This document shows positions 17,659 to 22,641 of a stretch of DNA of 64,000 nucleotides, in pieces. This stretch comes from Magnetococcales bacterium (GTDB taxonomy: Bacteria; Pseudomonadota; Magnetococcia; Magnetococcales; UBA8363), in the NCBI GenBank assembly GCA_015228815.1, contig JADGCV010000001.1, positions 124,001 to 188,000 on the forward strand, written 5' to 3'. The translations under genes were made by a program, and so were the position numbers. Within the stretch, counting starts at the first letter, position 1, and the number at the start of each line of letters is the position of its first letter. The notes beneath the pieces are model-generated. The model did no database searches. It was not told the origin of the DNA and worked only from the letters and a program-made list of their open reading frames with translations.

Positions 17659-18165
17659 TTATTTTTGACCGGATGTTTTGATTTCCAATTCCAGATTGGC
17701 CTTGCCAATCGCCGCCAACGGTATCGCCAGCCGTTCCCCCTCCCGAACCGTCAGAACGACCTCCTGTTCCACCACCTCCTGGATCACCCCCTTGAAATGA
17801 CGCTGCCTGGCAGCGCCATCATCCCCACCCACGGCCAGGGGAAGCAGGGTCGTCAGACGGACCGCCCTTCCCTGGAAACGGATGAAATCCTCCCTCGTTT
17901 TCAGGGGACGTTCCAGACCCGGCGACGAAACCTCCAGGCGGTAGGCATGGGGAAGCGGATCACGCACATCCAACAACCCCTCGACATGGTCACTGACCCG
18001 GGCACAATCCTCGATGGTCGGCGAGGCACCACCCAGCCGTTCGATGAACAGTCGAAGAAACCAGGACCGGCCATCCTTGACATAGTGCAGATCGACCAGT
18101 TCGCAACCGGCGGCACGGGCCGCCTGGCGAGACAGCGAAGTCAATTCTTCCAAGAGATTGGACAC
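17659..18165 (-). CDS. rimP: ribosome maturation factor RimP
   Basis: 30S maturation factor (DUF150). The 168 residues include ELVDLHYVKDGRSWFLRLFIE, the segment after DCARVSDHVEGLLDV, and the diagnostic YRLEVSSPGLERPLKTREDFIRFQGRAVRL. The second domain is the SH3-like C-terminal part (FKGVIQEVVEQEVVL). It is the first gene of the operon that continues nusA-ylxR-infB-ylxP-rbfA-truB-rpsO-pnp. The leader upstream contains a promoter and an intrinsic terminator. Confidence 0.95.
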   Translation of the reverse strand: MSNLLEELTSLSRQAARAAGCELVDLHYVKDGRSWFLRLFIERLGGASPTIEDCARVSDHVEGLLDVRDPLPHAYRLEVSSPGLERPLKTREDFIRFQGRAVRLTTLLPLAVGGDDGAARQRHFKGVIQEVVEQEVVLTVREGERLAIPLAAIGKANLELEIKTSGQK

Positions 18166-18673: not shown

Positions 18674-19945
18674 ATGTTGATTGAATTCAGCGTCGCCAAT
18701 TATCTTTCCTTCTGCGAACGTCAGACCCTGAGCATGGTCGCCAGCTCCCAATATCGGGAATTGCCGGGGCATCATTTTTCTTCCGGAGTCACGGGGGTTC
18801 CCAACCTGCTCGTGGCCAATCTGATCTACGGCGCCAACGCCTCGGGCAAGAGCAACCTGATCAATGCGGCGATGTTCATGTGGGATTTCATCCTCAACTC
18901 CGTCAAGGGACAGGAGGGCGATCCCATCGATGTACAGCCCTTTCTCCTCAACAGCCGCAATTCCCAGGAACCCAGTCTGTTCGAGATGATCTTCATCATC
19001 GACGACACCCGCTATCAATACGGTTTCGGGGTGACGCCGCGCCGGGTCAACCATGAATGGCTTCTGGCCTATCCCAAGGGACGGGCGCAACGATGGTTTG
19101 AACGGTACTACGATCCCGACACCGGAAGGGAAACCTGGAATCTTCACAAAAAATTTCTCCCCGGCAACCGGGAAATCTGGAAGGATGCAACCCGGGCCAA
19201 CGCACTGTTCCTCTCCACCGCCATCCAACTCAACAGCGCCCCCTTGAAACCGGTATTCGACTGGTTCGACAAGCGGCTGCGCATTTTTCGTCCGCATGCC
19301 GAGATCAGCCGCGAATTCACCGCCACCCTGTGCCAGGATCCCCAGGGACGGCTTGAAGTGATGAAATTTCTCAATCAGGCCGATCTGGACATCGAGGGGA
19401 TCCGTCTGGAAACCCGCAATCTGGGTGATCTGGGAATGGACGACCTGCCCGATGGGGTGCGAACCGCCCTGAAAAGGGAAATGTCCAGCCAGATCGTCAC
19501 CGAGGTCCGCCTTGAACGTTCCACTTCCGACACCGGCGAACCGGTGGTCCTGCCCTGGGAGGCGGAATCCCGGGGAACCCAGAAATTTTTCGCCCTGGCC
19601 TGGCCTTTGATCAATCTTCTGCGCCAGGGACACGTCCTGTTCCTGGATGAAATGGATTCCAACCTGCACCACAATCTGGTCCGTTTTCTTTTCGAACTGC
19701 TGCACGACCCCAAGGTCAACCGCACCCAGGCGCAACTGGTTTCCACCACCCACGACATCGCCCTTCTGGACAATGACCTCTTCCGCCGTGATCAATACTG
19801 GATGATCGAAAAGACGGGCGACCGTTGCAGTGAACTCTATCCGATTTCCGATTTCGATCCGGTCCGCGGAGAACCGTTGCAACGGCGTTATCTCGATGGC
19901 CATTTCGGCGCCCTTCCCATTCTCAAGCGGTTCGACGGGTGGTGA
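18674..19945 (+). CDS. AAA_21-type ATPase, RloA/AbiLi-like
   Basis: 423-residue ABC/SMC-like ATPase of the COG1106/RloA group. It has MLIEFSVANYLSF at the N-terminus, Walker A GANASGKS at residues 53-60, Walker B VLFLDEMDSNLHH near residue 320 and the switch histidine in STTHD near 356. The ATP site looks intact. In known AbiL/RloA-RloB loci such an ATPase partners with a Toprim-like RloB and gives phage defence by abortive infection. The next frame overlaps its stop (GTGGTGA) and has RloB-like features. It is divergent from the rimP operon and has its own candidate promoter. A defence role is inferred. Confidence 0.8.
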   Translation: MLIEFSVANYLSFCERQTLSMVASSQYRELPGHHFSSGVTGVPNLLVANLIYGANASGKSNLINAAMFMWDFILNSVKGQEGDPIDVQPFLLNSRNSQEPSLFEMIFIIDDTRYQYGFGVTPRRVNHEWLLAYPKGRAQRWFERYYDPDTGRETWNLHKKFLPGNREIWKDATRANALFLSTAIQLNSAPLKPVFDWFDKRLRIFRPHAEISREFTATLCQDPQGRLEVMKFLNQADLDIEGIRLETRNLGDLGMDDLPDGVRTALKREMSSQIVTEVRLERSTSDTGEPVVLPWEAESRGTQKFFALAWPLINLLRQGHVLFLDEMDSNLHHNLVRFLFELLHDPKVNRTQAQLVSTTHDIALLDNDLFRRDQYWMIEKTGDRCSELYPISDFDPVRGEPLQRRYLDGHFGALPILKRFDGW

Positions 19946-20628
19946 CGCCCTTGGACAGGCGACCTTCAGGACCCCGGGAGCGAACGCCGTCCTCCCTGGA
20001 ACGCATCAAGGGAGTACATGGCGTCCGCGACGGCATGCTGCTCCTGGCCCCCGCCGCCGCCATCCCCTACCTCGATGCCATGTCGAAACACCTTGGCCTG
20101 TCGCGTCGGATCGCCTTGGCCCAGATCCCCCCCTTTCCCTCACCCGAGGCGTTCATGGCCGAGGTCCGTCTTCATCATCGACGCCTTGGACCTTTGCGCC
20201 GCATCTTCGGGCTTGTCGAACTCCCCCTGGGCCCGACGACCCGAACCGCGGAGGTCCGGGCACTGCGTGATCTTGTCCGCCATCACGACCTTCCGGGCAA
20301 CGTTTCACTCCGGGTCCTCTTTTCCCGTCCCGGTTTTTCCCTGTGGATCGCCCTGCATTATTCCTTTTCCGCGCCGCCCGAAGACCCTTCCCTCATTGGA
20401 AACTGGATCGAAAGACTCCATTCCGAAATCCCTCCCGATTCCCCGACCGTGATTTTTTCCGATCCGGTCGCCGTCCCCCGAACACTCGATACCGCCATGG
20501 ACCGGGCGCGATTTCTCGCCCGGAATCGGGCGCACCATCCAACCGATGAATGTCTCCCCTTCACGGAAGTCCATGAACTGATGGCCTGTCTGATACGTCT
20601 GGGGCAACGAATTCCCGAAAAACATTGA
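19942..20628 (+). CDS. RloB-like protein with degenerate Toprim motifs (putative AbiL partner)
   Basis: 229 residues; GTG 19942 overlaps the ATPase stop as GTGA, so the two are coupled. The C-terminal half matches the RloB pattern as I know it. RVLFSRPGFSLWIALHYSF corresponds to the SNPxFELWLLLHF block, and AMDRARFLARNRAHHP..LPFTEVHELMACL to the terminal A..rA.....PsT.VH.LV..L block. The N-terminal MLLLAPAAAIPYLDAM stands where RloB has an LIxCEGExTExxYF motif, and IFGLVELP where it has VFDRDD. The acidic catalytic residues thus appear to be absent. Alternatively it is an unrelated unknown. The alignment was made by eye. Confidence 0.55.
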   Translation: MTPLDRRPSGPRERTPSSLERIKGVHGVRDGMLLLAPAAAIPYLDAMSKHLGLSRRIALAQIPPFPSPEAFMAEVRLHHRRLGPLRRIFGLVELPLGPTTRTAEVRALRDLVRHHDLPGNVSLRVLFSRPGFSLWIALHYSFSAPPEDPSLIGNWIERLHSEIPPDSPTVIFSDPVAVPRTLDTAMDRARFLARNRAHHPTDECLPFTEVHELMACLIRLGQRIPEKH

Positions 20629-20807: not shown

Positions 20808-21584
20808 ATGTCCGACACCACGGAACAAATTCTGGATCAGGTTCTGGCCCGCGTACAGGGAATCTGGGCCTCTCCGATTCCGGTCGCGCGTTTCGAGTTC
20901 GAGTTGAAACGACTGGAACGGATCGTCAAGGAGTACCGTCGGAAGGAACCGACACGCGCCTTCTATCTATTGGGGTTGCTGGCGACCCTCATGGACGATC
21001 CGGAAAGGATGCGTGCCAGTTTCAGGAATGCCCTGGCGCATTCGGGTAACGATTTCGACGTGCGCCATGGATTCGGTTCGTGCCTGGCCCGCCTTGGATT
21101 TTTTTCCGAGGCGCGCAACCAGTACGAACTTCTCTACCAGGACAACCCCGAGGACCTCGACGTTCTGGCGGAACTGATCGTCTCGTCACTGGCGGCGGGA
21201 CGGATCCAGGAAGGGGTCAAGTGGATCCAGTGCTGGAGCGAACTCAACCCCGACCGGCCCTTCGAAGAGGCCGAAACCATCGCCAGAAGCGGCGCCCTGT
21301 TGCAGAAATTCGGCATCTCCGATGATCAGGTCGAACGTCTCCAGGGATTGGCCCTGCGCATTCTTGAAAAGGAACGCAAGGAGGTCAAGACCATCAACTA
21401 CCGCGGCATGCCCGAGGAAAATCCGCAGTGGATCGATGCAAGCCTGGTCCTCGACGAACCGGAGGATGTCGTCGATGCGTTGAACAGCAAACTCGCCTCG
21501 GCCCTTTCCAACACGACGACACCACGCAAGGTCGCCGATCTGGTCGTCTTCAACTATGCCCGCGAACATCAGTCGGTTTCATGA
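20808..21584 (+). CDS. TPR-like protein of unknown function
   Basis: 258 residues with no signal peptide, beginning MSDTTEQILDQVLARVQGIW. Residues ~45-165 form helix pairs with TPR spacing (AFYLLGLLATLMDDPERMRASFRNAL, FGSCLARLGFFSEARNQYELLYQDNPEDLDVLAELI). The rest is charged and not recognised. It is probably a cytoplasmic protein-interaction module. It lies 179 bases after the rloAB-like pair on the same strand, beyond a weak terminator, so membership in that module is possible but unproven. Confidence 0.6.
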   Translation: MSDTTEQILDQVLARVQGIWASPIPVARFEFELKRLERIVKEYRRKEPTRAFYLLGLLATLMDDPERMRASFRNALAHSGNDFDVRHGFGSCLARLGFFSEARNQYELLYQDNPEDLDVLAELIVSSLAAGRIQEGVKWIQCWSELNPDRPFEEAETIARSGALLQKFGISDDQVERLQGLALRILEKERKEVKTINYRGMPEENPQWIDASLVLDEPEDVVDALNSKLASALSNTTTPRKVADLVVFNYAREHQSVS

Positions 21585-21660: not shown

Positions 21661-22641
21661 TCAGGCCTTTGTCGATAATCCGTGAAAAAGATTTTCCATG
21701 ACGTGTCCTCCGCGCTGGAGCCGTTCCGCGTCATCCGTTGTCGATGCGACGATTCCCGAAAGAACTGTCGCAATCCCTGGTGACTCTTCATGCTGGAAAC
21801 AACCTCCACCCAGATCCAGGTCGTGAACGATGCCTGCCAGTGCCTTCATCGCTGGCCAAGACACGTCAAAATGCCGGACCAATACCTCGAAGGTACATGC
21901 TTCTCCTTCATGGGTGAATTCTCCTCCAGGCATATCGAAACAAATTTCTCCCTCCCTGGGGTGATCCTCCCGATCGGCGACAAAACGAAAGACGGCCTCC
22001 GGATCGATGAACCTGCGGATCAACCAGGCCGAAGCGATGCGATCCACGTAAACCCCGGACCGGGTCACCCAGGTCTTGCGATGATAGTGCTTCTTGTCAC
22101 GCAGTGCCGGTTCCTGATCTTCGTCGGCTGGATTTTCCAAACGGTTCAATTTTGATTCCACGGCGATCAGTTGTTCTTTCAGGGACGCCCCTTCAGGGGC
22201 ATCAAAAAAATCGATCCGCCGAATCTTGAGCGCCCGTTTCCGAATCGCCTCGATTTCCCGCCGCCAGTTTGTCGTGCATTCATTGGTGGACAGACCACTG
22301 TTTCCAACGTCGGTCACCATCTCCAGGAGTCGTTTCGCTTCCCGGATCAGGGGAGTGTACTCCAGATTGCGTGCCGTCTGGAAACTTCCCTTGATTTCTT
22401 CTTCGATCCCGATCCCGGGAAAAACCACCTCCCCGACAAACGCCCGTCCTCCTCCCGATTCGATTTCCTGGGCCAACCACACGAACCCTTCATGTCCCTC
22501 TGGAGAGGCCGGAAGCAGGTAGACTGAATTCTTCAACGCCACCGCCCCCAGGGACGAAAGACGATTGGCCACCTTGTTGCGCAGGTAGGCGGGCTTTGGC
22601 GGAATGTTGTGAATCAGCAGGCTCCAACGAAGGGGATTCAT
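21661..22641 (-). CDS. chrB: chromate resistance protein ChrB-like
   Basis: 326 residues. The N-terminal part (to about residue 150, starting PLRWSLLIHNIPPKPAYLRNKVANRLSSLGAVALKNSVYLLP) resembles the ChrB N-terminal domain. From about residue 189 the ChrB C-terminal domain is clear: TWVTRSGVYVDRIASAWLIR, RFIDPEAVFRFV, CFDMPGGEFTHEGEACTFEVLV and LAGIVHDLDL. ChrB proteins act as chromate-responsive regulators or help detoxify chromate. No chrA permease is nearby; the divergent genes encode a DUF2148 iron-sulphur protein and an MFS transporter. Ribosome binding site AGGA precedes ATG 22641. Confidence 0.82.
   Translation of the reverse strand: MNPLRWSLLIHNIPPKPAYLRNKVANRLSSLGAVALKNSVYLLPASPEGHEGFVWLAQEIESGGGRAFVGEVVFPGIGIEEEIKGSFQTARNLEYTPLIREAKRLLEMVTDVGNSGLSTNECTTNWRREIEAIRKRALKIRRIDFFDAPEGASLKEQLIAVESKLNRLENPADEDQEPALRDKKHYHRKTWVTRSGVYVDRIASAWLIRRFIDPEAVFRFVADREDHPREGEICFDMPGGEFTHEGEACTFEVLVRHFDVSWPAMKALAGIVHDLDLGGGCFQHEESPGIATVLSGIVASTTDDAERLQRGGHVMENLFHGLSTKA

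What the first reader, a model, noticed from the sequence alone, without database searches (positions are those of the whole stretch)
18674..20628. RloA/AbiL-like defence pair whose RloB-like partner lacks acidic Toprim motifs
The ATPase has intact Walker A, Walker B and switch His. The coupled second gene aligns by eye with RloB at FSLWIALHYSF and at the C-terminal AxxRA..P.TxVH block. Where RloB has EGExTE and DxD-type acidic residues, this protein reads APAAAI and VELP. If real, this is an AbiL variant with a non-nucleolytic or differently acting effector, located beside an essential translation operon.
Basis: partly seen in the sequence, partly recalled or inferred. Interest (0 to 1): 0.75.

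Follow-up and report, generated by a model that had tools for sequence, protein, structure and literature searches.

The report
Domesticated defence ATPase with dead nuclease
In an order of bacteria best known for magnetic-compass swimmers, what looks like a former anti-phage gene pair has become a stable inherited part of the genome: its ATPase is as conserved as a translation gene, while its nuclease partner has lost its cutting residues and changes fast, which hints at a new non-cutting job that still has to be tested.

Summary
Genes 18674-19945 and 19939-20628 (+) are an intact RloA/AbiLi-type ABC ATPase and an overlapping RloB-type partner without the Toprim acidic residues. The partner is a real RloB homologue: PF13707 matches 28 of 29 orthologues, best E 6e-14. 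It is no sequence error: in 29 of 29 orthologues the Toprim Glu and the TE Glu are gone.

The surprise lies outside the coordinates. The pair was found only in Magnetococcales and is inherited vertically. The ATPase orthologue is in 30 of 33 genomes of the crown clade; the three without it are incomplete and also lack nusA. ATPase and NusA trees agree. The ATPase evolves at NusA's rate (dN ratio 1.0-1.3), the partner 7-9 times faster yet under purifying selection; ordinary RloAB pairs give 0.5-1.5. Four lineages keep the ATPase with no partner. The ATPase has its own fixed residues, such as R282 where relatives have His in 28 of 28.

Best reading: a defence-derived RloAB complex, domesticated as a non-nucleolytic cellular machine. 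An old defence system with a non-cutting, arms-race partner remains possible. Function is inferred, not shown.

The parts
18674..19945 (+). RloA/AbiLi-type ABC ATPase (PF13304), 423 aa; orthologue conserved across Magnetococcales
18830..18853 (+). Walker A, GANASGKS (residues 53-60)
   Evidence: G53, N55, A56, G58, K59, S60 in 32 of 32 aligned orthologues
19517..19519 (+). Clade-specific residue R282 of the ATPase
   Evidence: R in 32 of 32 orthologues, H in 28 of 28 outside relatives
19634..19651 (+). Walker B, VLFLDE (residues 321-326)
   Evidence: D325 and E326 in 32 of 32
19748..19756 (+). Switch motif T359-H360-D361
   Evidence: 32 of 32
19939..20628 (+). RloB-type partner without Toprim catalytic residues, 229 aa; overlaps the ATPase stop (GTG at 19939 or 19942)
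20044..20070 (+). Site of the lost EGxxTE motif (residues 36-44)
   Evidence: Toprim Glu and TE Glu 0 of 29 in the orthologue clade
20215..20226 (+). Site of the degraded DxD motif (reads VELP, residues 93-96)
   Evidence: both positions acidic in 9 of 29 orthologues, not in the window
20329..20358 (+). Retained RloB core block PGFSLWIALH (residues 131-140), its conserved Glu replaced by S134
   Evidence: P131, W136, H140 in 29 of 29; the Glu in 5 of 29
20808..21584 (+). TPR protein downstream; a neighbour in two genera, probably not a required part
17659..18165 (-). rimP, start of the divergent rimP-nusA-ylxR-infB operon; context in one genus only

Best explanation
A two-gene RloAB (AbiL-type, split OLD-type) defence unit was recruited in an ancestor of most Magnetococcales and turned into a vertically inherited, non-nucleolytic cellular complex. 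Shown by sequence: an intact ABC ATPase with clade-specific fixed residues, under constraint like NusA's, and a partner with the predicted RloB architecture but without the metal-binding residues, free to change except at a few core and N-terminal positions. Inferred: the ATPase dimer or oligomer is the working part, cycling ATP on a cellular ligand; the partner docks on it through the retained RloB surfaces (R15, R22, the PxFxxW...H block, A186, the C-terminal helix) as an adaptor or regulatory subunit; and it does not cut nucleic acid. Because four lineages lack the partner, the ATPase probably has a partner-independent role. Which ligand or process it serves is unknown.
For: Catalytic loss is clade-wide: Toprim Glu 0/29, TE Glu 0/29, FExW Glu 5/29, YxK 0/29, against 37/37, 32/37, 37/37 and 37/37 in the comparison set; a check not selected on the motif found Glu in 67 of 75 aligned segments outside the order, Gly in 3, gap in 5. 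Vertical: 33 orthologues monophyletic at 100/98 with genera recovered, matching NusA (distance correlation rho 0.67, 0 of 2000 permutations, 24 genomes). Near-universal in the crown clade: 30 of 33. Rates: ATPase/NusA dN medians 1.00-1.34; partner/ATPase dN medians 6.7-9.2 over 82 within-genus pairs; ordinary RloAB 0.5-1.5 over 6 pairs. Partner functional: pN below pS in every 40-codon window of three close pairs, omega 0.15-0.45 in 16 pairs, open frame in 29 genomes. ATPase without partner: G013, G005, G006, G016. Clade-fixed ATPase residues shared by the solo ATPases. Precedent: Cran1, a vertically inherited archaeal OLD ATPase with a cell-cycle role (PMC12796447; abstract and sections 7 and 16 read).
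Against: No phenotype, interaction or activity is known; function rests on evolutionary pattern. The orthologue is absent from families f2, f5, f8, f9, f11 and f14, including near-complete genomes and one closed one, so it is not essential for the order. No neighbour gene is conserved across all genera that would name a process. Fast partner evolution also fits an arms race. In BpOLD single substitutions of metal ligands had no discernible effect and triple mutants kept some nicking (PMC6755086, passages), so residual activity cannot be ruled out where acidic residues remain (9 of 29 keep both DxD positions, not the window).
Confidence: 0.56

Rival explanations
1. It is still an anti-phage system, old and vertically kept: the conserved ATPase is the sensor or motor and the fast, non-cutting partner is the phage-facing part (trigger, decoy or alternative effector).
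For: Ancestry is a defence family; relatives sit on plasmids and prophages; the partner evolves fast, as arms-race proteins do.
Against: ATPase at NusA rate, presence in 30 of 33 crown genomes, no sign of mobility, no diversifying signal in 40-codon windows of three close pairs; partner absent in four lineages that keep the ATPase. No PADLOC hit among nine neighbouring window proteins, but that test did not separate it from two ordinary RloAB loci either.
Confidence: 0.29
2. The partner keeps a different catalytic or nucleotide-binding activity built on the residues it still has (for example the EWDG acidic pair of one genus or the conserved His140).
For: H140 and W136 are in 29 of 29; 22 of 29 keep an acidic residue at the first DxD position.
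Against: No acidic position of the ordinary active site is conserved across the clade, and the window has Pro at the second DxD position; H140 is equally invariant in ordinary RloB (37 of 37), so it is not new.
Confidence: 0.07
3. The partner is a decaying leftover gene under relaxed constraint, and only the ATPase matters.
For: Low identity (20-47% to the window), a roughly 30-residue deletion in two congeners, outright absence in four lineages.
Against: Intact frame in 29 genomes, omega 0.15-0.45, pN below pS in all windows, invariant R15, R22, P131, W136, H140, A186, E213, high-confidence predicted fold.
Confidence: 0.05
4. It is a dead decoy that protects the cell from ordinary RloAB toxins in the same genomes.
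For: 14 of 29 carriers also hold an ordinary or near-ordinary RloB.
Against: 15 of 29 carriers hold none; its ATPase is more conserved than the supposed targets.
Confidence: 0.03

Closest known systems
RloAB / AbiL (AbiLi-AbiLii), PF13304 + PF13707
   Same: Bicistronic ABC ATPase plus RloB-type partner; homology of both parts.
   Different: No Toprim catalytic residues; vertical and near-universal in its clade; slow ATPase with fast partner; ATPase sometimes alone. For ordinary AbiLii, the F. nucleatum protein inhibited E. coli growth and the L. lactis one did not (PMC3985639, passages).
Cran1, class 5 OLD ATPase-nickase of Sulfolobales
   Same: Defence-type OLD ATPase whose tree follows the species tree and which serves a cellular role (PMC12796447).
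   Different: Cran1 has an active nickase in the same protein and is archaeal; here the two parts are separate genes, bacterial, and the Toprim site is lost.
PARIS (AriA-AriB)
   Same: Split ATPase plus Toprim partner; the ATPase matches the AriA PADLOC model.
   Different: The partner matches only RloB/AbiLii models and has no Toprim Glu; in AriB the E26A mutant does not cleave (PMC12409363, passages).
OLD class 1-2 nucleases (TsOLD, BpOLD, GajA)
   Same: Toprim plus helical domain resembling the partner model (6nk8, 6njv, 6njx).
   Different: Fused to the ATPase and catalytically equipped.

Membership tests
RloAB / AbiL | PF13304-type ATPase gene directly followed by or overlapping the partner gene | tested here: met
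   PF13304 E 1.1e-32, AbiLi 1.3e-87; a candidate start codon before the end of the ATPase stop in 26 of 29 loci
RloAB / AbiL | Partner homologous to RloB (PF13707) | tested here: met
   Window alone is below cut-off (E 0.0017); 28 of 29 orthologues match at E 0.01 or better, best 6e-14
RloAB / AbiL | Toprim catalytic residues (Glu, DxD) | tested here: not met
   Toprim Glu 0 of 29; both DxD positions acidic in 9 of 29 and not in the window
RloAB / AbiL | Toxic effector and phage resistance | not testable with these tools
   needs expression and phage assays
OLD/Toprim fold | Toprim-like alpha/beta core with helical domain | tested here: inconclusive
   AF2 pLDDT 90.4, same element order as an ordinary RloB model; OLD C-terminal regions at Z 5.9-7.1 tie with lumazine synthases; the ordinary RloB model gives OLD 6p74 Z 8.6 and 6nk8 Z 8.0
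PARIS (AriAB) | AriB-type (DUF4435) partner | tested here: not met
   only RloB and AbiLii models match the partner at E up to 1; the DUF4435 label is recalled
OLD class 1-3 | ATPase and Toprim in one chain | tested here: not met
   two separate reading frames, each ended by its own stop, in all 29 loci
Cran1-like domesticated OLD | Gene tree follows species tree | tested here: met
   (NusA as proxy for the species tree)
Cran1-like domesticated OLD | Nickase activity | not testable with these tools
   catalytic residues absent, activity not assayed

The most novel reading that the evidence does not exclude
A bacterial order has turned an RloAB anti-phage unit into a core, vertically inherited cellular machine: the ATPase took on a new constrained role (with its own fixed residues, even without a partner), and the nuclease became a fast-evolving pseudo-nuclease adaptor. 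It would be a split-OLD/RloAB domestication and a bacterial counterpart of archaeal Cran1; I found no report of one in the searches named under Tried and rejected.
Probability: 0.5. Interest if true: 0.82.

Novelty: new variant of a known kind. Interest (0 to 1): 0.68.

Why it matters
How defence genes become cellular genes is rarely seen in progress. Here one order holds several stages side by side: ordinary RloAB, RloAB with a reduced CEDSKSG motif, the dead-nuclease pair, and the ATPase alone. That makes it possible to ask what an RloA ATPase does when it no longer controls a nuclease. It also warns that defence annotation (PADLOC scores this ATPase as AbiLi at 1.3e-87) can label core genes as an anti-phage system.

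Tried and rejected
Frame or sequence error as cause of the missing motifs: rejected, since 29 genomes agree. Natural ATPase-partner fusion in G027 and G033, suggested by 690-700 aa open frames: rejected, the partner frame merely stays open upstream. Sequence search of PDB with the partner profile: no meaningful hit. Defence-island contrast: no PADLOC hit among nine neighbours here, but none among ten neighbours of two ordinary RloAB loci either, so it does not discriminate. Promoter/terminator scan: 0 promoter-like sites found, 0.8 expected; 6 terminator-like, 3.5 expected; nothing used. Conserved functional neighbour: none across all genera. Diversifying selection in the partner: not seen. 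The partner tree does not place the dead clade next to the CEDSKSG group that the ATPase tree favours; it hangs on a 1.12 branch and its placement is open. The first NusA tree is invalid: ten rows were read on the wrong strand; one search replaces it. The viral-contig scan with the ATPase found no relative. AriB-type and other Toprim entries did not appear in the structure lists, which shows nothing either way.

Selection effects to know: the 28 non-class members of the 37-row comparison set were picked by a V-x-E-[GD] motif, so their Glu column is circular; one search is the unselected check. L137, L142, L177 and L179 were left out of the 66-row alignment, and so was L130 (in-class, not orthologous, partner reads VTKD, so without the Glu). 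L108 (truncated ATPase) was left out of the 32-row ATPase alignment and of the rate counts; families with one genome were left out of the rate medians.

Papers: PMC12796447 abstract and sections 7 and 16; PMC12409363, PMC10568477, PMC10440598, PMC6755086, PMC3985639 passages only; all others search listings. That I found nothing like this in print rests on the searches in one open-licence library.

Full report
The observation. The window lies in a genome (G000) of an order that a named relative identifies as Magnetococcales: locus L136, 72% identical in the ATPase, is from a Magnetococcales MAG whose contig length (27,388) equals that of G037:C92. Two overlapping genes at 18674-19945 and 19939-20628 (+) encode an ATPase (PF13304 E 1.1e-32; AbiLi 1.3e-87) and a partner with a weak RloB match (PF13707 E 0.0017, cut-off not reached).

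Is the partner an RloB? Alone it is borderline. Its orthologues settle it: 28 of 29 match PF13707 at E 0.01 or better, best 6e-14, and several exceed the family cut-off in a genome search. An AlphaFold2 model from a 66-row alignment has pLDDT 90.4 and pTM 0.82, with the same order of main strands and helices as a model of an ordinary RloB from a Geobacter MAG (pLDDT 92.0). Structure searches are consistent with, but do not prove, an OLD-type Toprim plus helical domain: OLD C-terminal regions score Z 7.1, 6.4 and 5.9 with the longest alignments (149-155 residues) but tie with lumazine synthases; the ordinary RloB model gives OLD nucleases at ranks 1 and 3 (Z 8.6, 8.0).

What is lost. In the 66-row alignment the strand-1 Glu is present in 37 of 37 comparison rows and 0 of 29 orthologues; the TE Glu in 32 of 37 against 0 of 29; the FExW Glu in 37 of 37 against 5 of 29; the Tyr and Lys of YxK in 37 of 37 against 0 of 29. 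The first DxD position is acidic in 22 of 29, both positions in 9 of 29; the window has E94 and P96. R22, P131, W136, H140 and A186 are kept in 29 of 29; R15 and E213 are also invariant within the clade. Because the outside rows were chosen by motif, I repeated the check without that choice: 73 of 79 non-class ATPase loci have an RloB-like partner downstream, and of 75 aligned segments 67 have Glu, 3 Gly (all three keep the TE Glu) and 5 a gap. In BpOLD the residues at such positions bind the two metals (PMC6755086, passages), and AriB E26A does not cleave (PMC12409363, passages). So loss of cutting is the likely reading, with residual activity not excluded for relatives that keep both DxD acids.

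Who has it. Of 48 genomes held for the class, 33 carry the ATPase orthologue (identities of 52-93% to the window in the aligned rows). In the clade made of families f1, f6, f7, f12 and f13 it is in 30 of 33 genomes; the three without it (G035, G046, G047; 57-75% complete) also lack a nusA match. The partner is present in 29 of these 30. Families f2, f5, f8, f9, f11 and f14 lack the orthologue (some hold other RloAs). Outside the class the best ATPase identity found is 46%. No relative was found in viral contigs; 177 plasmid records and 8 phage records hold relatives, all under 60% identity, best rows 37% and 40.5%.

Vertical inheritance. The 33 orthologues form one clade (100/98) in which genera are recovered, and the NusA tree shows the same arrangement: G019 and G013 outside, then g15, then g14, g7 and g1. 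Pairwise distances of ATPase and NusA correlate (rho 0.67, 24 genomes, 0 of 2000 permutations) with slope 1.14; ATPase and partner distances correlate too (rho 0.62, 28 loci, 0 of 2000). The dead partners are one clade (100/100).

Rates. Within four genera (82 pairs: 15, 10, 21, 36) median dN of the partner is 6.7, 6.7, 7.7 and 9.2 times that of its ATPase; ATPase dN is 1.34, 1.01, 1.00 and 1.22 times that of NusA (15, 1, 15 and 21 pairs with NusA). Six pairs of ordinary RloAB from the same order give 0.5-1.5. The partner is not simply decaying: omega 0.15-0.45 in 16 pairs against 0.01-0.09 for the ATPase (one ATPase pair had saturated dS), and pN is below pS in every 40-codon window of three close pairs. 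Many dS values are above 1, so the omegas are rough.

ATPase alone. In G005, G006 and G016 the frame in the partner's slot, 4-14 bases after the ATPase, reads as an NAD-dependent epimerase (Pfam run on G006's copy only); in G013 no partner frame follows. Neither the partner search nor the RloB search found an orthologous partner elsewhere in these genomes (G013 and G016 have another RloB at a different locus). G013 is 99% complete and G006 93%. G019, next to G013 in the NusA tree, has a partner, so G013 most simply lost it; for the other three the order of events is open.

ATPase change. Twenty-two positions are fixed (95% or more) in the orthologues and rare (15% or less) in 28 outside relatives: R282 (His in 28 of 28), H333 (Pro 21), Q403 (Glu 24), L11 (Arg 23), A363 and others. 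The solo ATPases share them (15-16 of 16 positions tested); other in-class RloAs have at most 6. So the ATPase itself changed, not only its partner.

Neighbourhood. rimP-nusA lies upstream in the window's genus only; a TPR gene lies beside the pair in that genus and in g14 (10 loci); in other genera GGDEF, ClpB-like or zinc-ribbon genes are near. Nothing names a process.

Interpretation. Ancestry is defence; present behaviour, by the measures I could take, is that of a core gene with a fast non-catalytic subunit. I favour domestication into a non-nucleolytic complex (0.56) over a persistent defence system with a phage-facing partner (0.29). The direct precedent is Cran1, where the agreement of gene tree and species tree prompted the work that found a cell-cycle role (PMC12796447, sections 7 and 16). 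The steps from sequence to docking, adaptor role and cellular ligand are inferred.

Noticed in passing
L120, L121, L122 (families f3, f4, f10): Solo orthologous ATPase sits in a tight apparent operon with an NAD-dependent epimerase and, further on, an AsmA-family gene.
   Followed up: partly
L123, L126, L128, L129 and L180 partners: RloB subfamily with a reduced motif (CEDSKSG and similar): strand-1 Glu kept, TE Glu lost; an apparent halfway state. L130's partner reads VTKD, without the Glu.
   Followed up: partly
G000:C19 and G000:C17 (L134, L135): The window's own genome carries two further RloAB-type pairs with EGxxTE motifs, 28-30% identical to the window in the ATPase.
   Followed up: partly
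window 20808-21584: TPR protein conserved next to the pair in two genera, 82-86% identical within the genus.
   Followed up: partly
G026:C379 and G011:C205: Partial second copies of the orthologous ATPase at 69% and 72% identity to the window's ATPase; may be second genes or foreign contigs in these genomes.
   Followed up: no
L099 and L100 partners: Two congeners lack about 30 residues between the core block and the C-terminal helices, in frame.
   Followed up: no
L131 (G027:C1) and L132 (G033:C45): Weak RloB-like matches with no match to the window's ATPase nearby.
   Followed up: no
window 21664-22641: ChrB-family gene (chromate resistance type) next to the TPR gene.
   Followed up: no
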